Positions 19,906-32,287 of a stretch of 64,000 bases of DNA are shown one piece after another; position 1 is the first letter of the stretch; every line of letters begins with the position of its first letter. Source of the stretch: Faecalibacterium longum CLA-AA-H243 (lineage in GTDB: Bacteria > Bacillota > Clostridia > Oscillospirales > Ruminococcaceae); NCBI RefSeq assembly GCF_020687245.1, contig NZ_JAJEQG010000006.1:1-64000 (forward strand), given 5' to 3'. The translations under genes were made by a program, and so were the position numbers. A model generated the notes under the pieces. That model was given only the letters and a program-made list of their open reading frames with translations. It was not told where the DNA came from and did no database searches.

Positions 19906-20670
19906 ATGCAGATAAACGACCTCTTCGGCGCAGCAGCCGCCTTTGAAACCGTACGGATGCCGGACGGCACGGAAGCGGCCATTCCAACAGAACACGCCGC
20001 AGTTATCTATGTAAATGAACAGCCGGCCTTCCGGGTGGTATGCACACCCCAGCTTCTGCCGCAGCTGGCGCTGGGGCGGCTGCTGACCGAAGGATGGATC
20101 GCCTCCGCAGAGGAAGTGGAACAAATTGCCGTCTGCGCGGAAGGCTTGAAAGTCAATATCTACCTGAACCACCCGCTGACGGCCCGCCGCGCGGCGGCGC
20201 AGGAAGTTTCCAGCTGCTGCACCGACAATGTCGCGCTGGGCAGTCCGGTGGAAGTGCAGCCGCTGCGCACGGTTCCGTATCTGGACGTACAGCCGGAGTG
20301 GGTGGACGCCCTCGCCGCCGCCATGAGCGCGGGCCTGCCGCTTTATCAGGCCACCCATGCGGTCCACAGCTGCTTTGTGCTGCACGAGGGCCGCATCCTC
20401 TGCGCCTGCGAGGACATCGGACGCCACAACGCACTGGACAAAGCCGTGGGCAACGTGCTTCTGGCCGATGTCCCCCTCAGCGAATGCGTGCTCTACACCA
20501 GCGGCCGCGTACCGATGGATATGGTGCGCAAAGCCATCCGGGCCGGCGTTCCGGCACTGGTCAGCAAGACCATGCCCACCGTCCAGTCGCTGGAGTTGGC
20601 CGCAGAATACGGCCTGCAATTCGTGTGCGGCCGGAAACATCCCTTAACTTTGAAGGAACGTACAAAATAA
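19906..20670 (+). CDS. fdhD: FdhD-family sulfur carrier for molybdo/tungsto-enzymes
   Basis: FdhD proteins carry sulfur from a cysteine desulfurase to the molybdenum cofactor of formate dehydrogenase. 254 residues with the family segments LALGRLLTEGWI (near 55), ATHAVHSCFVLHEG, CACEDIGRHNALDKAVG and YTSGRVPMDMV...GVPALVSKTMPT. The sulfur-carrying loop, usually CxxC, here reads SSCCTDN with two adjacent cysteines (C104, C105), an atypical form. No formate dehydrogenase is nearby; instead an AOR-family enzyme follows. It is preceded by the tRNA terminator, and a new promoter lies just downstream, so it is probably a separate unit. Confidence 0.88.
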   Translation: MQINDLFGAAAAFETVRMPDGTEAAIPTEHAAVIYVNEQPAFRVVCTPQLLPQLALGRLLTEGWIASAEEVEQIAVCAEGLKVNIYLNHPLTARRAAAQEVSSCCTDNVALGSPVEVQPLRTVPYLDVQPEWVDALAAAMSAGLPLYQATHAVHSCFVLHEGRILCACEDIGRHNALDKAVGNVLLADVPLSECVLYTSGRVPMDMVRKAIRAGVPALVSKTMPTVQSLELAAEYGLQFVCGRKHPLTLKERTK

Positions 20671-20703: not shown

Positions 20704-20733
20704 TTGACTTACTTCCGGCCTGAGTGATAATAT
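20704..20733 (+). promoter_or_regulatory. Promoter of the FMN-protein/ferredoxin/AOR operon
   Basis: -35 TTGACT (20704-20709), 18-base spacer, -10 TAATAT (20728-20733). The predicted start near 20740 is only about five bases before a hairpin at 20745-20778. Confidence 0.75.
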
Positions 20734-20831: not shown

Positions 20832-21749
20832 ATGAAGCAGGCAACCAACCCGTTTGCGCCCGTTTCGCTGTGGCGCAAGCGGCTGCCGGGCTATGCGGCC
20901 ATGGGCGCTGCGACAGTCGCAATGGCGGTAGGTCTTATCGCAATGCAGCACGCGCGCACCACGGTTGCAGGTACCCTGCTGCAGGTGTCGGAGGCGGATG
21001 CAGCCGCCTACGGCATCAGCGCAGTGTACCAGCTCGACAACGGCAGCTATCGCGTGGAGGGCTCTCAGAAGGGCTTCCAGAGCGATGTGCAGGCTGCCGT
21101 GACCCTTGACGCCGAGGGCAATGTTTCCGCTGTCGAGATCCTCTCGCAGGCAGAGACGGACAGCCTCGGCGGCCAGTGTGTCAACCCGGAGTTCACGTCC
21201 CAGTATCAGGGCGCAGCTCCCTTTACGCTGGCAGGCAAAAGCTATACTGTGACCGACCCCCTGACCGGTGCCGCCTATGCCGCTGCCGGTGCGGCGGAGG
21301 AGCAGCCCGCTGCTGCGGAGGATTTTGACCCCGCGCAGTGGAACGTGTCCGACACCTCTCCCGAGGCCGAGGCCACCCGCAGGATGTACGCAGCAGGTCT
21401 GACCCTCTCGGCACTGAACGGCGAGCCTCTGGCCGACGAGCTGATCCCTCCGATGGATACCAGCGCCGAGGCTGTGGCACGCCGCAAGCTCTACGCTGCC
21501 GGTCTGAGCAAGAGTGCGCAGGACGGTGAGGAGCAGGCTCTGCCCTATGCGGACTGGTCCGCAGAAAAGCAGGCCGCTTATCAGCTGGCACAGGCCGAAC
21601 TGACCACCGGGCAGACCAATGCCGGCGCTGTCAGCGCAGACCTGACCGAGGTGGACGCCCTTTCCGGCGCGACCATCACCTCGACCGCCGTCACCAACAT
21701 CGTCAACAACTCGTATTTCTATGTAACTGAGGTGCTCCGCGCAGAGTGA
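20832..21749 (+). CDS. Membrane-anchored FMN-binding domain protein
   Basis: 305 residues. A basic N-terminus and one membrane segment (about residues 20-42) put the rest outside the cytoplasm. The C-terminus carries LSGATITSTA (277-286), the flavinylation motif in which the threonine of the ATxT sequence (T283) is covalently linked to FMN by ApbE. The FMN-binding domain is split by a low-complexity insert (about residues 145-255) that contains two copies of the phrase RRxLYAAGLxxSA. Such extracytosolic flavoproteins pass electrons between membrane carriers and partner reductases. It is first in an operon with a Tat ferredoxin and an AOR-family enzyme. No apbE gene is in the window. Confidence 0.82.
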   Translation: MKQATNPFAPVSLWRKRLPGYAAMGAATVAMAVGLIAMQHARTTVAGTLLQVSEADAAAYGISAVYQLDNGSYRVEGSQKGFQSDVQAAVTLDAEGNVSAVEILSQAETDSLGGQCVNPEFTSQYQGAAPFTLAGKSYTVTDPLTGAAYAAAGAAEEQPAAAEDFDPAQWNVSDTSPEAEATRRMYAAGLTLSALNGEPLADELIPPMDTSAEAVARRKLYAAGLSKSAQDGEEQALPYADWSAEKQAAYQLAQAELTTGQTNAGAVSADLTEVDALSGATITSTAVTNIVNNSYFYVTEVLRAE

Positions 21750-21771
21750 CCTCAACGGAGGAATGGAACCT

Positions 21772-22416
21772 ATGGCAAAAACTGATTTTCTGACGGCTGA
21801 CATGACCCGCCGTCAATTTATGAAGATCTCGGGCAAGAGCCTTGCAGGGCTCACCCTCTCCGCATCCATGCTGTCCCTCTTCGGCTGCTCGCAGAAGCAG
21901 GTGGACAGCGGCGCAGTGGCTACCTGGGCGCTGCCCCAGGGCCTGCTGGTGGTCAACGCCGACCTGTGTACCGGCTGCCAGCGCTGCGAGATCAACTGCA
22001 CGCTGACCAACGATGGTGTGTGCTCCTCTTACATCAGCCGCGTGAAGATCCAGCGCCGTCTGAATCTGGACGGTGCCGGCAACGGCCTGCTGTCCGGCAA
22101 CGACAACTGCTTTGTCTACTTCCCGGATACCTGCCGCCAGTGCGAGGACCCCGCCTGCGGCAACGCCTGCCCCCAGAAGGCCATCACCACCAATGCCCAG
22201 GGCATCCGTGTGGTGGACACCGACAAGTGCATCGGCTGCGGCGCCTGCCACGAGGCCTGCCCCTGGCATATGCCCACCGTCAACCCCGAGACCGGCAAGT
22301 CGTCCAAGTGCATCGCCTGCGGTGCCTGTGTGGCAGGCTGCCCGTCCGGCGCTCTGTCCATCGTGGACTGGGATGCCGTCACCAGCGCAGCACAGGCTGC
22401 CTACATGGACCTGTAA
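21772..22416 (+). CDS. Tat-signal polyferredoxin (YdhY-like)
   Basis: Electron-transfer protein of about 214 residues. The N-terminus has a twin-arginine signal (TRRQFMKISGKSLAG) with a cysteine after LSLFG that could be a lipobox. Four cysteine groups follow: CTGCQRCEINC, CRQCEDPACGNAC, CIGCGACHEAC and CIACGACVAGC, enough for four [4Fe-4S] clusters. The arrangement matches ferredoxins coded beside AOR-family enzymes, such as YdhY beside YdhV in E. coli. The ATG at 21772 has correct spacing to GGAGG; an ATG at 21763 is too close. It ends 12 bases before the AOR gene. Confidence 0.88.
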   Translation: MAKTDFLTADMTRRQFMKISGKSLAGLTLSASMLSLFGCSQKQVDSGAVATWALPQGLLVVNADLCTGCQRCEINCTLTNDGVCSSYISRVKIQRRLNLDGAGNGLLSGNDNCFVYFPDTCRQCEDPACGNACPQKAITTNAQGIRVVDTDKCIGCGACHEACPWHMPTVNPETGKSSKCIACGACVAGCPSGALSIVDWDAVTSAAQAAYMDL

Positions 22417-22428
22417 GGAGGAACAACA

Positions 22429-24609
22429 ATGGCTGAATATTATGGCTGGGCAGGCAAGATCCTGCGCGTTGACCTGACCACCGGCGAGATCACCACGCAG
22501 GATGACGCAAAGTACCATAAGTATATCGGCGGTATGGGCATGGCCTACCGCATCATGTATGAGGAAGCTCCCATGGACCTCGACCCCTACGACGAGAAGG
22601 CACAGGTCATCTTCGGCGTCGGCCCCCTGACCGGTGCCGGCGTACCCTGCTCCGGCCGCATGAACGTCACCTTCCGCTCCACCTGGTCCAAGGGCAGTTC
22701 CATCATCGACGCCCACATGGGCGGCCACATCGGCCCCATGCTGAAGTATGCGGGCTGGGACGGCATCGTCATCACCGGCATCTCCGAAAAGCCCGTCTAC
22801 CTGCGCATCGAGGACGACGAAGTCTCCCTCGAGGATGCTTCTGACATCTGGGGCAAGGGTACGTTCGCGTCCAACAAGTGGATGGTGGAGCAGAACGGCC
22901 GTGAGTTCGAGACCGCTTCCATCGGCCCTGCCGGTGAGAATCTGGTGGACTACTCCACCCTGAACACCAGCTTTGGCAACTCCGGCGGCGCCGGTCTGGG
23001 CGCTGCCATGGGCAACAAGAAGCTGAAGGGCCTGGCCATCCGCGGCACCGGCAGCGTCAAGGTGGCCGACCCCAAGAAGGTGCTGGAGCTGTCCAACTAC
23101 ATGATGGGCAACCTCATCGGCGGCAACAACAACCACAACGTCCCCGCACAGCCCCAGAGCTGGGCCGAGTACAGCGCCACCTCCGGCAAGAACCGCTGGT
23201 CCGGCGCACCGGGCCGTATGTGGAAAAAGGCTCCCGGCGGCCCCGTGGATACCGGCGAGCAGCCCTACAACGACATCAATAAGATCGCGCTGCGCTGCTT
23301 CAAGGGTTACTTCGACTTCGGCGCACCGGCTGCGGAGTACACCGTGAAGAACGGCGGCTGCTCCTCCTGTCCCATCCGCTGCTACACCGAGTATGATGTG
23401 GACCCGCTGGCCGATTACGACCTGCCCACCCACAACTCCAACACCTGTATGCCCGTGCTGTACGGCACCCGCGTCTACCCGGACGGCGTCCACGACTTCA
23501 AGTACGAGGGCGACGGCACCATGGTCATCAACCTGGCATGGTCTCATGCCGTCGATGACATGGGCCTGTGGGACAACTACGGCAACCTGAACCGTGACCT
23601 GCTGTGGATCCTGCGGATGCCCCGTGAGGAGGCCACCAAGTACATCAGCGAGGAAGAGTACGACTCCCTGCCCTGGGCATGGGAAAAGGCCGGTGACCCC
23701 CGCTGGGAGGTAGAGCTCATCCGCCGCATGGCTTACGGTGAGGGCGACCTGTCCGTCATCGCAAAGGGTACGCTGGCCATGATGGAAAAGTTCGGCCTGC
23801 CCAAGAGCTGGCTGGACCGCACCGACGGTGCCACCAACTCCAACCTGATGTACAACGGCTTCCCCAACCACCACGGCCCCGCAGAGGCATGGCAGGTTGG
23901 CATGCTGTACAATCTGGTGTATAATAGAGACTGCATGATCCACGAGATCGTCTGCGAGACCGGTTCCGGCGCACCCTACGAGGTGACCAAAAAGGTCATG
24001 GAGGACTTCTTCGGCGAGGGCTGCTACGACAAGGCCAAGGCCTACACGCCCATCAACGAGAACAAGGCAAAGCTGGCCGCCTACTGCGTCAACGATAAGA
24101 ACTTCCACGACTCTGCCACCCTCTGCAACTGGATGTGGCCCATGACCCAGTCTCCCTCCAAGGAGCGGGCCTACCACGGCGATCTGGACCTGCAGGCAGA
24201 TTTCATGACCGCCGTCACCGGCGAGACCTACACCCAGGCCGGTCTGCAGGAGGCAGGCGAGCGCATCACCCAGATGCTGCGCGCCATGACCGCCATCAGC
24301 TTCCAGAAGAACTGCGGCAGCGCAAATCTCCGTCAGGAGCACGACGCCATCTGCGACTGGGTCTTCGACAAGGAACCCGACTTCAAGGCATTCGAGGAAG
24401 GCACCACCAAGCTGGACCGCGCCGACATGGAGAAGGCAAAAGACCTGTTCTATGACATCTTCGGCTGGGACAAGACCACCGGTGTGCCTACCCGCGAGAC
24501 GCTGGAGAAGTTCGACCTCGGCGACATGGCCGACGATCTGGAAGCACGCGGCATCTACGACCAGACTCCCGCCGGAGAGACTGCTGCCAGCGAGGCCGCA
24601 GCCCAGTAA
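22429..24609 (+). CDS. Aldehyde:ferredoxin oxidoreductase family enzyme
   Basis: Tungsten or molybdenum bis-pterin enzyme, 726 residues, longer than archaeal AOR (about 600). The AOR N-terminal domain is clear: GKILRVDLTTGEIT, the PLTGAGVPCSGRMNV pterin region and GGHIGPMLKYAGWDGIVITG. Cluster ligands are C311, C314 and C318 (CSSCPIRC), with C629 or C642 as candidate fourth ligand. No signal peptide, so the enzyme is likely cytoplasmic or exported with its ferredoxin partner. It is closest in layout to YdhV-type enzymes. The substrate cannot be told; family members oxidise aldehydes or reduce acids. The molybdopterin and ModABC genes downstream fit its cofactor need. Confidence 0.9.
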   Translation: MAEYYGWAGKILRVDLTTGEITTQDDAKYHKYIGGMGMAYRIMYEEAPMDLDPYDEKAQVIFGVGPLTGAGVPCSGRMNVTFRSTWSKGSSIIDAHMGGHIGPMLKYAGWDGIVITGISEKPVYLRIEDDEVSLEDASDIWGKGTFASNKWMVEQNGREFETASIGPAGENLVDYSTLNTSFGNSGGAGLGAAMGNKKLKGLAIRGTGSVKVADPKKVLELSNYMMGNLIGGNNNHNVPAQPQSWAEYSATSGKNRWSGAPGRMWKKAPGGPVDTGEQPYNDINKIALRCFKGYFDFGAPAAEYTVKNGGCSSCPIRCYTEYDVDPLADYDLPTHNSNTCMPVLYGTRVYPDGVHDFKYEGDGTMVINLAWSHAVDDMGLWDNYGNLNRDLLWILRMPREEATKYISEEEYDSLPWAWEKAGDPRWEVELIRRMAYGEGDLSVIAKGTLAMMEKFGLPKSWLDRTDGATNSNLMYNGFPNHHGPAEAWQVGMLYNLVYNRDCMIHEIVCETGSGAPYEVTKKVMEDFFGEGCYDKAKAYTPINENKAKLAAYCVNDKNFHDSATLCNWMWPMTQSPSKERAYHGDLDLQADFMTAVTGETYTQAGLQEAGERITQMLRAMTAISFQKNCGSANLRQEHDAICDWVFDKEPDFKAFEEGTTKLDRADMEKAKDLFYDIFGWDKTTGVPTRETLEKFDLGDMADDLEARGIYDQTPAGETAASEAAAQ

Positions 24610-24613
24610 TTAA

Positions 24614-24773
24614 GAAGCCGTTTTCATAAGCATTGCACACCGCCCGAACGGTCTTTTTGCCCGCATACGGCGTTGCTTTTCCTTGCAATCCGTCAGGATT
24701 GCTGCGGAAAATCGCCTTGTCTACGGGCAAAAATCCTCGCCGTTCGATGCACTCTGCTTACAAAAACAACTTC
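24614..24773. repeat. 160-bp foldback element (long form)
   Basis: Outer arms of about 25 bases (24614-24638 and 24747-24773) pair imperfectly around GTTTT, TAAGCA and TGCA blocks. Inner arms CGAACGG/CCGTTCG (24645, 24740), TTTTTGCCCG/CGGGCAAAAA (24654, 24724), TTTTCC/GGAAAA and GCAATC/GATTGC complete one very long hairpin. It fills the gap between the AOR gene and the next gene. A short form is at 45925-45972. It looks like a MITE-type repeat that could also serve as an mRNA processing site or attenuator. Confidence 0.65.
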
Positions 24774-24794
24774 ACAGAAACGAGAGGAACTATC

Positions 24795-25712
24795 ATGCTG
24801 TTTGGCAGACGCAAACCCGGTTATACCACCACGGTGGACGCCGCCTCCGACCCTGAGCAGGTCATCCTCGACCTGCAGAAGGCAGAGATGGCCGCGAAAA
24901 AGAAGCCGAAGGCCGAGGTCTTTGACATCGACGCGGCCAGCGAGACTGCCCGCCGCCTGAAGGAAACGGGCAGTATGTTCGACGGCAGCGCCGCAAAGCT
25001 CGGCGAGGACGTCATTGCCGCTGTGCAGAAGGAGACGGATGCTCTGGCCGCAAAGCAGGCCGAGGCACAGCCCGCTCTCGAAGAGACGGCTGCACCGCAC
25101 GCCGCCGAAAAGCCCCAGCTGCTGGATTTTCTGGCCGCTGCACCGGAGGCAGAGGGCGACCCCTACGCCGACCAGCCCACCGTCACCGCGCCGGAGCTGC
25201 CCAAGCTGACCCCGGCACAGGAGCTGGCGGGTTACATCCGCTCCCGCTCGGCGGCGGCGCTGGTCACATCCCACGCCCTGCTGGTGAGTGAGGTGGAAAA
25301 CGCCGATGAACTTCTGGCCCAGATGCCGGAAGACCCCCAGTGCGCAGACATCGTGTCCCGCGCCGGCGCAAAGGATGCCTACTACTACTCCAGCGCCAAC
25401 ATGAGCGACAACTACGCCATGATCGCGCAGCTCATCGAGGACAAGGACCTCTGCGCCATGGTGGCCGAGATGGTGCGGTTCAACGCCCGCGTCTACCCCA
25501 GCGCCACCCCGCTGCGGTACTTCCGCCGCTCGCCCTACGATCTGACACAGGAAGCCATTGAGCAGACGTGGCAGTCCATGCAGGGCAAGCCGGAGTACGC
25601 CGACATCGAGGAGCTGACCAACAACCAGAACGAGCGGTTCCTCTTCTCCACCCAGCACCTCACCCGCCGCTACGCAAAAGCCATCAGCGACGTGGACGAG
25701 TGGACCGACTAA
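24795..25712 (+). CDS. Unknown protein in the AOR/molybdopterin block
   Basis: Not recognised. 305 residues, no signal peptide or membrane segment. Residues 1-45 are basic, then an acidic, alanine/glutamate-rich linker (about 45-140) is likely disordered or coiled. The C-terminal half (about 140-300) looks globular and contains ELAGYIRSRSAAALVTSHALLVSEVENADELLAQMPE, then KDAYYYSSANMSDNYAMIAQLIEDKDLCAMVAEMV and RYFRRSPYDLTQEAIEQTWQ. Start ATG at 24795 with GAGAGGA ahead. Position between the AOR gene and the molybdopterin genes suggests a role in maturing or using the enzyme, but this is only context. Confidence 0.75.
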   Translation: MLFGRRKPGYTTTVDAASDPEQVILDLQKAEMAAKKKPKAEVFDIDAASETARRLKETGSMFDGSAAKLGEDVIAAVQKETDALAAKQAEAQPALEETAAPHAAEKPQLLDFLAAAPEAEGDPYADQPTVTAPELPKLTPAQELAGYIRSRSAAALVTSHALLVSEVENADELLAQMPEDPQCADIVSRAGAKDAYYYSSANMSDNYAMIAQLIEDKDLCAMVAEMVRFNARVYPSATPLRYFRRSPYDLTQEAIEQTWQSMQGKPEYADIEELTNNQNERFLFSTQHLTRRYAKAISDVDEWTD

Positions 25713-26052
25713 AGCATCCCACACAATCAAATAGGGTATATGAGCTTCTTTGAGCAAAGGTGTCTAAACCGTCGGGCATGACACCGCGCCGCAATGCTAA
25801 GGGCTATATAAGCCGGCATTCAAGGGTGGAGGGGGAAACCCCGCCGCCTTCCCGCAGAAGAAACGCTGCAATTTGAAAAAAAGAACTCCTCCCATCCTCA
25901 CAGGGGCTTTCCATGCTCTGCCGCCACTGCAAGGGCGGCAGGGAGCGGAGAGCAGCCATCGGCATGGCAGTCTGCAAGCTGCCCTTTGCCGGAATGTGCG
26001 GATATTCTGCGGAGGCGTTTTGATTTTCCATCAAGACGTCTCCGCTTCTTTT
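25713..26052 (+). promoter_or_regulatory. Structured leader with terminator before moeA (candidate riboswitch)
   Basis: A 427-base gap before moeA holds no credible ORF but several stems: AATGC...GGCT/AGCC...GCATT (about 25793-25834), GGGG-GAAA-CCCC with a GNRA loop (about 25843), CTGCCGCC/GGGCGGCAG (about 25918-25946), and finally GCGGAGGCGTTTTGAT / ATCAAGACGTCTCCGC followed by TTCTTTTTT (26009-26052), a strong terminator. Multi-stem RNA plus terminator directly upstream of a Moco biosynthesis operon is the layout of a Moco-type riboswitch. I could not match the published motif base by base, so this remains a candidate. Confidence 0.5.
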
Positions 26053-26139
26053 TTAGCCTGTCTTTTTATATGAATCCCCGCTGCGCCCCGCCTGAGCCAT
26101 AGCAGACCGGGTGTGGTCGGGCATTTGGAGGATTTTTTT

Positions 26140-27378
26140 ATGAAACAGCCTTTCTGCGCGCCCTCTGAGGCGCTGCGCCGCGTGCTGGATGCCGCTGCGG
26201 CTCTGCCGAGGCCGGAGACGGAGACCGTCCCGCTGGACGAAGCGGACGGCCGCATTGCCGCCGGGACGCTTTCGGCCCGGATGGATCAGCCGCCCTTTGA
26301 CCGCAGCCCCTTCGACGGCTACGCCCTGCACAGCGCCGACGCCGCCGGTGCCAGCCGTGAAACACCCGTCACCCTGCCCGTGACCATGAAGCTCTACGCC
26401 GGAGATGCCCCCGCTTCGCCTCTGCCTGCTGGCTGTGCGGCCCGCATCATGACCGGCGCACCCCTGCCCGAGGGCGCAGACTGTGTGCTGATGCAGGAGC
26501 TGACCGACAGCGGCGAGGAGACGGTACAGCTCTATGCCGCCATGAAGCCCCAGCAGAACGTGGTATTCCGGGGCGGAGACATCGCCGCCGGTGCTGTCAT
26601 CGCCGAAGCCGGTACGGTACTCTCCCCCGCCCATCTCGGCGTGCTGGCCGGGCAGGGATACGCTGAAGTCCCCGTTTACAAGACGCTGACCGTGGGCGTT
26701 CTGGCCACAGGAAGCGAGCTTTTAGCTCCGGGCGAGGCTTGGACGCCCGGCAAAATTTACGATGCCAACGGCGTCCAGAACGCCGCCCGCCTGCGGCAGC
26801 TGGGCTTTGCGGTAAAACGTCGGCACTGCTCCGACGACCCGGAGGAGATCGCCCGTGAGATGCGGGAACTGCTGGCGGAGTGCGACGCCGTCATCACCAG
26901 CGGCGGCGTCTCGGTGGGGCAGAAAGACTATCTGCCCGCTGTGCTGGAACAGCTGAATGCGGACATCCTCTTTGCAGGCGTGGCCCAAAAGCCCGGAAGC
27001 CCCATGCTGGCCGGGAAAGTGGGCGGCAAGCTGGTGTTCTGTCTCTCCGGCAACCCCTTTGCCGCCGCCGCTACGCTGGAACAATATGCCGTCCCGGCTC
27101 TTTTGCGGGCGGCGGGGCGCTGTGAGGAAAGCTGCCTTCTTCCCCGCACCACCCGCACCCTGACCACGGGCTTCTCGAAGCCCAGCAAGGGGAACCGCTA
27201 TCTGCGGGCAAAGGCCATGGGCGGCAGCGTGACCATCCCCGGCGAGGGCAACGCCGAAGCCCACTCGTCCGGCAGCCTTTCCGCCATGATCGGCTGCAAC
27301 TGTCTCGTTGAACTGCCTGCGGGCAGCGGCCCGGTGACTCCGGGCGAAGAAGTGGAGGTGCTCAGTTTTGTACAGTGA
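26140..27378 (+). CDS. moeA: Molybdopterin molybdenumtransferase
   Basis: Inserts molybdate (or tungstate) into adenylated molybdopterin. 412 residues with the MoeA domains: N-terminal part with DQPPFDRSPFDGYALH, domain with RIMTGAPLPEGADCV near residue 105, the MPT-binding Mog-like domain with VLATGSELL, KIYDANG and the TSGGVSVGQKDY motif near 255, then LSGNPFAA, and a beta C-terminal domain. An ATG at 26140 follows TTGGAGG. First gene of a tightly packed operon; its last codons overlap mobB by 11 bases. Confidence 0.95.
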   Translation: MKQPFCAPSEALRRVLDAAAALPRPETETVPLDEADGRIAAGTLSARMDQPPFDRSPFDGYALHSADAAGASRETPVTLPVTMKLYAGDAPASPLPAGCAARIMTGAPLPEGADCVLMQELTDSGEETVQLYAAMKPQQNVVFRGGDIAAGAVIAEAGTVLSPAHLGVLAGQGYAEVPVYKTLTVGVLATGSELLAPGEAWTPGKIYDANGVQNAARLRQLGFAVKRRHCSDDPEEIAREMRELLAECDAVITSGGVSVGQKDYLPAVLEQLNADILFAGVAQKPGSPMLAGKVGGKLVFCLSGNPFAAAATLEQYAVPALLRAAGRCEESCLLPRTTRTLTTGFSKPSKGNRYLRAKAMGGSVTIPGEGNAEAHSSGSLSAMIGCNCLVELPAGSGPVTPGEEVEVLSFVQ

Positions 27379-27899: not shown

Positions 27900-28919
27900 A
27901 TGAAACTGATTCGTACCGAAGACGCGGCAGGCCAGGTGCTCTGCCACGACATTACCCAAATCATTCCCGGCGAGTTCAAGGGCGCACGTTTCCGCAAGGG
28001 CCATATCATCCAGCCCGAGGACATCCCCGTGCTGCTCTCCATCGGCAAAGAAAACCTCTACGTCTGGGAGAAAAAGCCCGGCATCCTCCACGAGGACGAA
28101 GCCGCCGCACTGCTGTACAAGGCCGCTGCGGGCAAGAACATCCACGGCACCGAGCCGAAAGAGGGAAAAATCGAGCTCATCGCCGACTGCGACGGCCTGC
28201 TGAAAATCAACCGCGAAGCCCTGCTGGCCGTGAACCGCACGCCCCAGATGATGATCGCCACCATCCACGGCGACCTGCCCGTGAAAAAGGGCCAGAAACT
28301 GGCCGGTACCCGCATCATCCCTCTGGTCATCGAACAGGAGAAGATGGATGCCATGCAGGCTGCCGCAGGCAGTGAGCCTATCCTGAACGTGCTGCCCATG
28401 CAGGCCAAGAAGTTTGCCGTCATCACCACCGGCAGTGAGGTGTTCAAGGGCCGCATCGAGGATAAGTTCACGCCTATCCTCGTGGGCAAGCTGGCCGAGT
28501 ACGGCTGTGAGATGACCTTCCACAAGGTCTGCGACGACGACCCGGCGGGCATCACCGCCGCCATTCTGGAAGCGAAAGAGGCGGGCTGTGAGCTGATCTT
28601 CACCACCGGCGGCATGAGCGTGGACCCCGACGACCGCACCCCGCTGGCCATCAGAAACACCGGCGCGGACATCGTCACCTACGGCGCACCGGTGCTGCCG
28701 GGTGCCATGTTCCTCGTGAGCTATCTGGACGGTGTGCCGGTCTGTGGCCTGCCCGGCTGCGTCATGTACGCCAAGCGCACCATCTTTGACCTGCTGCTGC
28801 CCCGTCTGCTGGCCGACGATGCCATCACCGCCGAGGATATTGCCCGTCTGGGCGAGGGCGGCCTCTGCCTTGGCTGCGCCGAGTGCCACTGGCCCAACTG
28901 CGGATTTGGGCATTGCTGA
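27900..28919 (+). CDS. Molybdopterin-binding MoeA/CinA-like protein
   Basis: 339 residues. The C-terminal two-thirds is a MoaB/Mog domain: [20 protein letters not shown] near residue 177, [19 protein letters not shown] near 228, then [30 protein letters not shown]. The N-terminal part is unlike MoeA domain I. The C-terminus holds a cysteine-rich tail ([17 protein letters not shown]), which may bind a metal cluster. Similar proteins occur in molybdenum hydroxylase and AOR gene groups, where they may handle a special cofactor form (inference). It follows mobB by 13 bases with an AAGGAGGA site. Confidence 0.85.
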
Positions 28920-28932
28920 GAGGTTTCATTCT

Positions 28933-29430
28933 ATGACTGACAACAAATTGACCCACTTTGATGCCTCCGGCAACGCCGTGATGGTGGATGTGAGCGAGAA
29001 GACTGTCACCTTCCGGGAGGCCACCGCCCACGGCATCATCACCATGAACGCCGAGGCATTCGCCGCCGTGGAGAGCGGCACCGTGAAGAAAGGCGATGTG
29101 CTGGGCGTGGCCCGCATTGCCGGCATCATGGCCACCAAGCGCACCAGCGAGCTCATCCCGCTGTGCCATCCGCTGCCGCTGACGAAAGTGAGCGTAGACT
29201 TCAGGCTTCTGCCCGAGCGGCAGGCTGTGGAGGCGCTCTGCACCGTCAAGACGGCGGGCGTCACCGGCGTGGAGATGGAGGCCCTGACGGGCGTTTCCAC
29301 CGCCCTGCTCACCATCTACGATATGTGTAAGGCCGTCGATAAGGGCATGGAGCTGGGTGAGATCCATCTCGTCGAGAAGACCGGCGGCAAGAGCGGCCAC
29401 TACATCCGGGCGGAGGGCGGCTATGTTTGA
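28933..29430 (+). CDS. moaC: Cyclic pyranopterin monophosphate synthase
   Basis: Second enzyme of molybdopterin synthesis, converting the MoaA product into cPMP. 165 residues with the MoaC signatures [18 protein letters not shown] near residue 17, [21 protein letters not shown] near 68 (catalytic His/Lys region) and [27 protein letters not shown] near 115. Starts 13 bases after the previous stop; its end overlaps moaA. Confidence 0.96.
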
Positions 29431-31414: not shown

Positions 31415-32287
31415 ATGAAAGCCGATCTCATTTCCCGCCGCAGCTTTCTGTCCGTGGTCGGCGCAGTCGGCGCTGCTGCTGCCCTGACCGCCTGCGGCGG
31501 CGCGGTTTCCAGCACTGCCTCTTCCACAGCTGCTTCCGAGGCTGCTGGCGAGAGCGTCGAGCTCATCGTCTTCGCCGCTGCCTCACTGACCGAGACCCTG
31601 AACGCCATCGCCCAAGACTACTCTGCCGAGAACCCGGGCGTCACCTTCCGCTTCAACTTTGATTCCTCCGGTACTCTCAAGACCCAGATCCAGGAGGGCG
31701 CTGACTGCGACCTCTTCCTCTCTGCCGGTCAGAAGCAGATGAACCAGCTGGACATCACCGCTTCTGCCGACGTAAACACCGACGGTCTGGACTTCGTGGA
31801 CCCCTCCACCCGCGTGGACCTGCTGGAAAACAAGGTCGTCCTCTGTGTGCCTGAGGGCAGCGACAAGGGCATCGACAGCTTTGATGCTCTGGCCGAGCAC
31901 CTGAAGGCTCAGGACATCCTGTTCTGCATGGGCAACAGCGATGTGCCTGTGGGCCAGTACACCCAGAAGGTCCTGGCCTACTATGACCTCGACGAAGAGG
32001 CTCTGGCTGCTGCCGGTGTCATCACCTACGGTTCCAACGTCAAGGAAGTCACCACCCAGATCAGCGAGGGCAGTGTGGACGCCGGTGTCGTCTACTGCAC
32101 CGACGCTTACAGCGCCGGTCTGACCCCCGTGGACGAGGCCACCGCCGAGATGTGCGGTCAGGTCATCTACCCCGCCGCTGTGCTGAAGGCTGCCCCCAAC
32201 GCCGAGGCCGCCAGGGAGTTCCTGGCCTATCTGCAGACTGACCGTGCCGCCACCGTGTTCGAGGGCGTGGGCTTCACGGCGATGTAA
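31415..32287 (+). CDS. modA: Molybdate/tungstate ABC transporter, binding lipoprotein
   Basis: Periplasmic-type binding protein anchored as a lipoprotein. 290 residues: signal MKADLISRRSFLSVVGAVG, lipobox ALTACGG with C28, then a Ser/Ala linker. ModA motifs: LIVFAAASLTETLNAIAQDY near residue 48, FNFDSSGTLKTQIQEGADCDLFLSAGQKQMNQL, and VDAGVVYCTDAY. The ModA class takes both molybdate and tungstate; the AOR-family enzyme upstream makes tungstate worth considering. AGAAGGAG ribosome site. It leads modABC. Confidence 0.92.
   Translation: MKADLISRRSFLSVVGAVGAAAALTACGGAVSSTASSTAASEAAGESVELIVFAAASLTETLNAIAQDYSAENPGVTFRFNFDSSGTLKTQIQEGADCDLFLSAGQKQMNQLDITASADVNTDGLDFVDPSTRVDLLENKVVLCVPEGSDKGIDSFDALAEHLKAQDILFCMGNSDVPVGQYTQKVLAYYDLDEEALAAAGVITYGSNVKEVTTQISEGSVDAGVVYCTDAYSAGLTPVDEATAEMCGQVIYPAAVLKAAPNAEAAREFLAYLQTDRAATVFEGVGFTAM

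What the first reader, a model, noticed from the sequence alone, without database searches (positions are those of the whole stretch)
20832..25712. FMN protein, Tat ferredoxin, AOR enzyme and an unknown gene as one redox module
The order FMN-binding membrane protein - Tat polyferredoxin - AOR-family oxidoreductase, followed by a complete cofactor and ModABC block, suggests an electron chain that spans the membrane. The unknown 305-residue protein at 24795 sits inside the block. The flavoprotein has a low-complexity insert inside the FMN-binding domain. Together it resembles YdhYV systems of unknown substrate.
Basis: partly seen in the sequence, partly recalled or inferred. Interest (0 to 1): 0.62.

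Follow-up and report, generated by a model that had tools for sequence, protein, structure and literature searches.

The report
Exported Mo/W redox operon, gut bacterium
A gut Faecalibacterium carries a conserved four-gene unit for a molybdenum- or tungsten-dependent enzyme, probably sent outside the cell membrane and wired to a flavin protein; its kind is known from E. coli and from a 2026 survey, but its substrate is still a mystery.

Summary
The genes are real and correctly placed. They form a member of a known kind, the E. coli Ydh system / "Class V tungsten oxidoreductase" (clade 41); Faecalibacterium and a flavin subunit of gut Clostridia are already named in print (PMC13328260). Added here: (1) the "unknown" gene is a YdhW homologue, found with YdhV in 35 of 35 relatives and modelled as two tandem, acidic winged-helix domains. 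(2) The catalytic subunit has the invariant cysteine that is the metal ligand in E. coli YdhV and benzoyl-CoA reductase, so it is probably no aldehyde oxidase. (3) The ferredoxin's twin arginine is invariant in 29 of 29 rows, and tatC lies within about 8 kb in 23 of 28 non-Faecalibacterium loci (0 of 7 Faecalibacterium loci), so Tat export of the pair is likely. (4) The flavin protein occurs in exactly the 13 of 31 genus genomes with the close YdhV; its insert is a conserved, partly duplicated module. (5) One relative of 35 has a whole Rnf operon directly upstream. Best reading: an extracytosolic reductase fed through a membrane flavoprotein. Shown: identity, linkage, motifs. Inferred: export, flavinylation, Rnf as donor, direction of electron flow, YdhW's role. 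Substrate unknown.

The parts
19906..20670 (+). FdhD-family cofactor chaperone (CC in the loop instead of CXXC)
   Evidence: PF02634 1.9e-52; loop alignment
20704..20731 (+). promoter-like site TTGACT-16-GATAAT upstream of the FMN gene
   Evidence: consensus scan; 3 sites found in the region against 1.4 expected (sd 1.1), so weak evidence; a closer consensus match lies inside ydhV at 23897-23925
20832..21749 (+). membrane-anchored FMN-binding protein (RnfG/NqrC-type fold) with conserved insert; motif DALSGATIT
   Evidence: PF04205 3e-14; fold hits RnfG 9eri_G 1.5e-4 on a low-confidence model; alignment A3
21348..21617 (+). insert inside the FMN domain (about residues 173-262): duplicated DTSxEAxxxRxxYAAGL module
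21763..22416 (+). YdhY/WorS: polyferredoxin with Tat signal and lipobox-like Cys, 16 further Cys = four [4Fe-4S] sites
   Evidence: NF007382 245>213 bits; RR and the 16 Cys invariant in 29 of 29 rows
22429..24609 (+). YdhV/WorL: AOR-superfamily Mo/W-bis-MPT catalytic subunit; Cys311/314/318/566 (cluster), Cys340 (metal ligand by homology); no signal peptide seen by eye
24610..24794 (+). 185-bp gap with a strong imperfect hairpin; the gap is 26-39 bp in seven other Faecalibacterium loci
   Evidence: fold z -4.1; gaps; only own copies among fetched loci
24795..25712 (+). YdhW: the 'unknown' gene; N-terminal extension plus two tandem winged-helix domains (residues 140-298)
   Evidence: NF007411 1.2e-35; E. 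coli YdhW 3e-28; model; repeat by hhalign 97.8%
26009..26045 (+). terminator-like hairpin, 16 pairs plus T run, after ydhW
   Evidence: 7 sites found in the region against 5.8 expected in shuffles
26113..27378 (+). MoeA
   Evidence: PF03453, PF00994, PF03454
27368..27886 (+). MobB
   Evidence: TIGR00176 122.6>76.2 bits
27906..28919 (+). MoCF-domain molybdopterin-binding protein (start uncertain)
28918..29430 (+). MoaC (start uncertain)
   Evidence: TIGR00581 205.8>141.5 bits
29357..30400 (+). MoaA (start uncertain)
   Evidence: TIGR02666 344>284 bits
30407..31339 (+). MOSC-MogA fusion
   Evidence: PF03473, PF00994
31415..32287 (+). ModA, with a Tat-like lipoprotein signal (by eye)
   Evidence: TIGR01256 114.9>62.5 bits
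32300..32971 (+). ModB
   Evidence: TIGR02141 204.8>182.6 bits
32962..34023 (+). ModC-like ATPase (below the ModC cut-off)
   Evidence: TIGR02142 196 bits, cut-off 285

Best explanation
The four genes are one unit for a Ydh-type (clade 41, 'Class V') oxidoreductase. YdhV receives a Mo- or W-bis-molybdopterin cofactor in the cytoplasm (ModABC, Moa/Moe, FdhD), with YdhW as a dedicated maturation or proofreading partner. Folded YdhV is then carried out by hitchhiking on the twin-arginine signal of its ferredoxin partner YdhY. Outside, it sits on the membrane next to the FMN protein, which ApbE flavinylates. Electrons cross the membrane through another complex, most likely Rnf, pass to the flavin, then through YdhY's four clusters to the Cys-ligated Mo/W centre, which reduces an unknown substrate. 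Shown here: gene identities, linkage, co-occurrence, conserved twin arginine, conserved cluster and metal-ligand cysteines, flavinylation-type motif, presence of ApbE, TatC and Rnf genes. Inferred: one transcript, export, flavinylation, Rnf as donor, direction, YdhW's role.
For: Ydh homology. Triad: tblastn found YdhW in 35 of 35 genome-contig loci and YdhY in 33 of 35 (the other two contigs start inside YdhV). Tat: RR invariant in 29 of 29 YdhY rows; TatC within the fetched stretch (up to about 8 kb each side) in 23 of 28 non-Faecalibacterium loci, TatA alone in one more (three of the TatC confirmed by Pfam); no signal seen on YdhV (by eye). Metal site: Cys340 invariant in 27 of 27 rows and aligned with E. 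coli Cys336, which PMC12096430 names as metal ligand shared with BamB only (passages). Flavoprotein: in exactly the 13 of 31 genus genomes with >=89%-identical YdhV. Own genome: one ApbE, one AOR-family gene, no PF00384 molybdoenzyme, hence no formate dehydrogenase of that family for FdhD to serve, TatC, Rnf genes (RnfC_N and RnfD Pfam matches, beside an FMN_bind match). L059 has six rnf genes, then FMN protein, YdhY, YdhV, YdhW, MoeA, an FMN_bind lipoprotein, TatA and TatC. A sister enzyme, CsWOR41L, showed no activity on 46 aldehydes (PMC13328260, section 12 read).
Against: Rnf adjacency was seen in one locus of 35. No Faecalibacterium locus (0 of 7) has tatC nearby, and TatC is in 30 of 31 genus genomes with or without YdhV, so it is not dedicated there. 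E. coli K-12 YdhY has Arg-Leu, not Arg-Arg. The FMN protein was found in only 13 of 35 loci; three loci without it (L031, L039, L040) lie in the same clade with at least 6 kb upstream of YdhV present, so it is an optional partner. Moco genes are not exclusive: MoaA is in 20 of 31 genus genomes, 6 of them without YdhV. A promoter-like site with 11 of 12 matches lies inside ydhV and could in principle drive ydhW alone. CsWOR41L was only partly purified and without its partner subunits, so its inactivity proves little. No expression, location or activity data.
Confidence: 0.6

Rival explanations
1. Same complex and place, but electrons run inward: an aldehyde or similar compound is oxidised outside and the electrons pass through YdhY and the flavin to Rnf.
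For: The protein fold is that of aldehyde oxidoreductases; Rnf complexes work in both directions (abstract of PMC12174285 in the listing).
Against: The Cys metal ligand is shared with the benzoyl-CoA reductase BamB, and the YdhV clade is said to lack the AOR second-shell residues (passages; Cys340). CsWOR41L showed no activity on 46 aldehydes.
Confidence: 0.15
2. YdhV stays in the cytoplasm; only YdhY is membrane-attached, by an uncleaved N-terminal helix, and the FMN protein has a separate job outside.
For: No signal seen on YdhV; E. coli YdhY lacks the second arginine; Ravcheev and Thiele 2014 predicted lone YdhV in two other genomes as cytoplasmic (PMC4257093 passages).
Against: RR-x-F invariant in 29 of 29 rows and tatC nearby in 23 of 28 loci; exact co-occurrence in the genus with a flavoprotein modelled with an N-terminal anchor.
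Confidence: 0.14
3. YdhW is a DNA-binding regulator of the operon, not a maturation partner.
For: Winged-helix folds are commonest in DNA-binding proteins (recalled); structural neighbours include MarR and an RNA polymerase III subunit.
Against: Core pI 4.5-6.1 in 34 of 34 members; found with YdhV in loci of Firmicutes, Fusobacteria and Spirochaetes; winged helices also serve in protein contacts (recalled).
Confidence: 0.2
4. The genes are neighbours by chance.
For: None found.
Against: Conserved order in the relatives and exact co-occurrence in the genus.
Confidence: 0.01

Closest known systems
E. coli ydhYVWXUT (YdhV, bis-Mo-MPT enzyme of unknown substrate)
   Same: YdhY, YdhV and YdhW homologues in the same order; same metal-ligand and cluster cysteines in YdhV.
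   Different: No YdhX, YdhU or YdhT counterpart among the genes next to it; an FMN_bind protein instead; YdhY has a true twin arginine here.
Class V WOR, clade 41 (Putumbaka et al. 2026, PMC13328260)
   Same: [quoted passage not shown] This locus fits that description.
   Different: The parts I read do not describe YdhW's fold, the flavoprotein insert, its exact co-occurrence with YdhV, or an Rnf-linked locus; its supplement was not available to me.
BamB, class II benzoyl-CoA reductase
   Same: AOR-superfamily reductase with a Cys metal ligand and a polyferredoxin partner (PMC12096430 passages).
   Different: Part of a large multi-subunit complex with a known substrate; cytosolic and without Tat signal (recalled).
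ApbE-dependent extracytosolic flavoprotein systems (Rnf/Nqr-linked; PMC8238504, PMC10979944)
   Same: FMN_bind protein with a flavinylation-type motif.
   Different: A word search of PMC8238504 found no 'aldehyde', 'molybdopterin' or 'tungsten', and one of PMC10979944 no 'aldehyde' or 'molybdopterin'.

Membership tests
Class V WOR / Ydh system | WorL of the YdhV clade (AOR fold with extra Cys metal ligand) | tested here: met
   44% identity to E. coli YdhV over 705 columns, Cys340 aligned with Cys336; NF007354 851 bits, just under its cut-off of 868. That the Cys binds the metal is from PMC12096430, not tested here
Class V WOR / Ydh system | WorS polyferredoxin with Tat signal and/or membrane helix | tested here: met
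   NF007382 above cut-off; RR motif invariant in 29 rows
Class V WOR / Ydh system | at least one further subunit | tested here: inconclusive
   YdhW and the FMN protein are encoded alongside; physical association not testable here
YdhW family (NF007411) | score above the curated cut-off | tested here: not met
   123 bits against 203; still a clear homologue, 3e-28 to E. coli YdhW
Aldehyde oxidoreductase sensu stricto (AOR/FOR) | no protein ligand on the metal; conserved second-shell residues | tested here: not met
   Invariant Cys340 in 27 of 27 rows at the YdhV ligand position. The second-shell part rests; my own 1aor alignment there is weak (7.8 bits)
Class II benzoyl-CoA reductase (Bam) | BamB with BamC-I partner subunits | tested here: inconclusive
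   Shares the Cys ligand; no Bam-like partners noticed among the annotated neighbours, genome not searched for them
NarJ/TorD/DmsD maturation chaperones (for YdhW) | all-helical fold and sequence similarity | tested here: inconclusive
   No NarJ/TorD family in the 25 shown of the 34 families that members matched by Pfam; model is a mixed helix and beta-hairpin winged helix; family not among the listed fold matches, which excludes nothing
ApbE-flavinylated FMN_bind proteins | FMN_bind domain with the Dxx[S/T]GATxx motif | tested here: met
   PF04205; motif in 13 of 13 genes, one of them with SSAT
ApbE-flavinylated FMN_bind proteins | covalent FMN | not testable with these tools
   needs mass spectrometry or in-gel fluorescence

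The most novel reading that the evidence does not exclude
The locus encodes an Rnf-powered anaerobic respiration in which a Tat-exported, benzoyl-CoA-reductase-like Mo/W enzyme takes electrons from a covalent flavin outside the cell to reduce a hard-to-reduce compound in the gut; and YdhW founds a new class of redox-enzyme escort, a tandem winged-helix protein unlike TorD/NarJ, without which the enzyme is inactive. That would help explain why the C. somerae enzyme, made without YdhW, showed no activity.
Probability: 0.3. Interest if true: 0.72.

Novelty: new member of a known kind. Interest (0 to 1): 0.45.

Why it matters
Clade 41 enzymes make up over 10% of this enzyme family and none has an assigned activity or role (PMC13328260). 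If they are exported reductases that need YdhW and FdhD, the failed activity test is explained, and expression of the whole unit becomes the obvious experiment. Faecalibacterium is an abundant human gut commensal, so an unknown extracytosolic reduction there could matter for diet-, drug- or host-derived compounds.

Tried and rejected
Considered and dropped: TatC as a Ydh-dedicated factor within the genus (present in 30 of 31 genomes). Moco genes as Ydh-dedicated in the genus (MoaA in 6 of 17 genomes without YdhV). [quoted passage not shown] The E. limosum cysteine desulfurase that co-purified with CsWOR41L might be meaningful given the FdhD linkage, but the authors call it unrelated and I cannot test it. 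The Cyf system of PMC4257093 (section 7 read) is a different predicted Faecalibacterium system. The fold search of YdhW gave only common winged-helix matches (best Foldseek E 0.053, none at 0.001; VIA Z 8.2 over 69 residues); no TorD/NarJ chain was among the listed rows, which excludes nothing. The FMN model is poor (mean pLDDT 56), so its insert has no reliable fold. Literature: nine PMC-only searches. I noticed no paper on YdhW's structure or role in the listings, but one search showed 40 of 51 papers, 15 of 82, and subscription papers are largely not held. Reschke et al. 2019 is known to me only through the papers that cite it.

Rows dropped before counts: L027 and L032 from A1; L026, L027, L029, L032 and the partial L039 from A2; L026, L027, L029, L032, L042, L048, L049, L057, L058 (near-copies or partial genes, not each examined) from A4; L032 from A3. 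Short flanks: FMN absence is not or hardly testable in L036, L042, L045, L050, L055 and L058; TatC absence not fully testable in L042, L053 and L057. In the class-wide search with YdhV at most two candidates per genome were scored, and in the wide searches with the flavin profile at most six, so misses there are possible; in the genus searches all candidates were scored.
Full report
WHAT IS THERE. Reading the window shows FdhD (19906-20670), then a promoter-like site (20704-20731), then four genes on the + strand: an FMN-binding membrane protein (20832-21749), a polyferredoxin with a twin-arginine signal (21763-22416), an AOR-superfamily protein (22429-24609) and a 305-residue protein (24795-25712). 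The first three genes are 12-13 bases apart; the fourth follows after 185 bases, a gap that is 26-39 bases in seven other Faecalibacterium loci. A 16-pair terminator-like hairpin lies at 26009-26045. This layout fits one transcript, but promoter and terminator counts in the region barely exceed the shuffled expectation (3 against 1.4 and 7 against 5.8), and a closer promoter match lies inside ydhV at 23897-23925, so it is not proof. After it come MoeA, MobB, a MoCF-domain protein, MoaC, MoaA, a MOSC-MogA fusion and ModABC. ModA and ModB pass the molybdate models' cut-offs; ModC does not.

THE 'UNKNOWN' GENE. It matches the NCBIfam YdhW family at 1.2e-35 (123 bits, under the cut-off of 203) and E. 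coli YdhW at 35% identity, 3e-28. Pfam has nothing for it below E 0.1; among 34 family members only scattered matches appear, none in more than two members (best 2e-7 to a eukaryotic family). A tblastn of the window proteins against 35 loci found by one genome-contig scan shows YdhW in 35 of 35, YdhY in 33 of 35 (the other two contigs start inside YdhV) and YdhV in each by construction. The AlphaFold2 model (34 rows) has pLDDT 95-98 over residues 141-300 and shows two copies of helix-helix-helix-hairpin-helix. A profile comparison of the N half with the C half gives 97.8% probability and E 6.9e-13, so the halves look like an old duplication. The second half superposes on winged-helix domains (best Z 8.2, 2.1 A over 69 residues), a common fold. 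All 34 cores are acidic, pI 4.5-6.1, which speaks against simple DNA binding. A protein-contact role, most simply maturation or proofreading of YdhV-YdhY, is my inference.

THE CATALYTIC SUBUNIT. Its N-terminal domain matches AOR, FOR and BamB structures. Cys311, Cys314, Cys318 and Cys566 (cluster, by homology) and Cys340 are invariant in 27 of 27 rows. Cys340 aligns with E. coli YdhV Cys336, which a 2025 review names as a metal ligand shared only by the YdhV and BamB clades, both lacking the second-shell residues of aldehyde oxidases (PMC12096430, passages). My own alignment to 1aor shows no counterpart of its EGPEYE stretch, but that part of the alignment is weak (7.8 bits). So this is probably not an aldehyde oxidoreductase in the strict sense, and aldehyde assays are likely to fail, as they did for partly purified CsWOR41L with 46 aldehydes (PMC13328260, section 12 read).

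WHERE IT WORKS. No signal is seen on YdhV (by eye). YdhY's RR pair and the phenylalanine two residues on are invariant in 29 of 29 rows, window included. TatC lies within the fetched stretch in 23 of 28 non-Faecalibacterium loci (misses: L035, L042, L053, L056, L057; L056 has TatA; L042, L053 and L057 have short flanks) and in 0 of 7 Faecalibacterium loci (tblastn, three confirmed by Pfam). The genus has TatC almost everywhere (30 of 31). PMC13328260 reports Tat genes next to one member, C. somerae. Export of YdhV by hitchhiking on YdhY is therefore likely, not shown. A counter-example to note: E. coli K-12 YdhY has Arg-Leu, while YdhX of that operon is listed as a predicted Tat substrate in an E. 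coli study (PMC7549933, passages).

THE FLAVIN PROTEIN. It has one N-terminal helix in a low-confidence model (mean pLDDT 56) and an RnfG/NqrC-type domain (best hits RnfG chains, 1.5e-4 to 5.8e-4). Thirteen of 35 loci have it, each with a Dxx[S/T]GATxx-type motif (one SSAT). The insert between the two halves of the domain carries conserved positions across Faecalibacterium and Lachnospiraceae and a 25-residue repeat at 64% identity in the window protein. In the genus it occurs in exactly the 13 of 31 genomes whose YdhV is at least 89% identical; the one genome with a 47% YdhV lacks it, as do the 17 without YdhV. In a class-wide sample of 391 genomes, 42 have some AOR-family match, 3 a YdhV-type one (full length, 43% or more) and 1, the window's own, the flavin protein (at most two and at most six candidates per genome were scored). 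In an order-wide sample of 394, 26 match the flavin profile and only 2, both Faecalibacterium, over its whole length. On a YdhV tree of 28 rows the flavin protein is confined to one clade of Bacillota (100/100) with three label changes, which fits one gain and two losses.

ELECTRON SOURCE. The genome has one ApbE, one AOR-family gene, no PF00384 molybdoenzyme, and RnfC- and RnfD-type genes (Pfam) beside an FMN_bind match that would be RnfG. In L059, a Eubacteriales MAG, six rnf genes (Pfam matches RnfC_N, RnfD, FMN_bind, two Rnf-Nqr and an Fe-S protein read as RnfB) end about 900 bases before the FMN gene, with a small MobB-like gene between, and YdhY, YdhV, YdhW, MoeA, a Tat-type lipoprotein with C_GCAxxG_C_C and FMN_bind domains, TatA and TatC follow. 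This is one locus of 35, but it is the most direct hint at Rnf as the step across the membrane.

WHAT IS KNOWN. Putumbaka et al. [quoted passage not shown]). Ravcheev and Thiele 2014 already spoke of a predicted Ydh reductase (PMC4257093, passages and section 7). So the kind is known. The additions here are YdhW's identity and fold, the metal-ligand cysteine in this protein, the tat and flavoprotein co-occurrence counts, the nature of the insert, and the Rnf-linked relative. FdhD sits near the genes in 22 of 35 loci, and 7 of those 22 show no cysteine in the aligned loop; since PMC6239281 (passages) reports that the CXXC motif is neither conserved nor essential, FdhD is best read here as a cofactor chaperone.

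LIMITS. No expression, location or activity data for this locus turned up in what I could read. Loci include near-copies, so counts are not independent events. The direction of electron flow and the substrate are inference.

Noticed in passing
24610-24794: The ydhV-ydhW gap is about 150 bp longer than in seven other Faecalibacterium loci and folds into a strong imperfect hairpin (z -4.1); among fetched loci it occurs only in copies of this place. Possibly a small mobile palindrome.
   Followed up: partly
31415-32287: ModA has a Tat-like lipoprotein signal (SRRSFL ... TACGG, by eye); its export route could also be Tat.
   Followed up: no
24795-24824 and relatives: YdhW of the clade that includes Faecalibacterium starts with a conserved MLFGR(R/K)KxG(F/Y) and a variable acidic linker that the other lineages lack.
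   Followed up: no
L059:12386-13366: Tat-type lipoprotein joining a C_GCAxxG_C_C domain to an FMN_bind domain, between MoeA and TatA in the ydh/rnf cluster.
   Followed up: partly
L034:3667-4254, L037:2402-2965, L059:5732-6310: A small MobB-like protein recurs upstream of the FMN gene in three relatives; Pfam match only weak in the one tested.
   Followed up: no
L031:6255-7175 and L038:4178-5035: LysR-type regulator genes (Pfam) upstream of the ydh genes in two relatives, possible substrate sensors.
   Followed up: partly
19906-20670 and 22 linked loci: FdhD lies near ydhYVW although the own genome has no PF00384 enzyme; the loop has CC here and no cysteine in 7 of 22.
   Followed up: partly
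L149 (unnamed genus member G020): A Faecalibacterium relative has a divergent (47%) YdhV with YdhW but without the flavin protein, near a contig end, with MoaA on another contig.
   Followed up: partly
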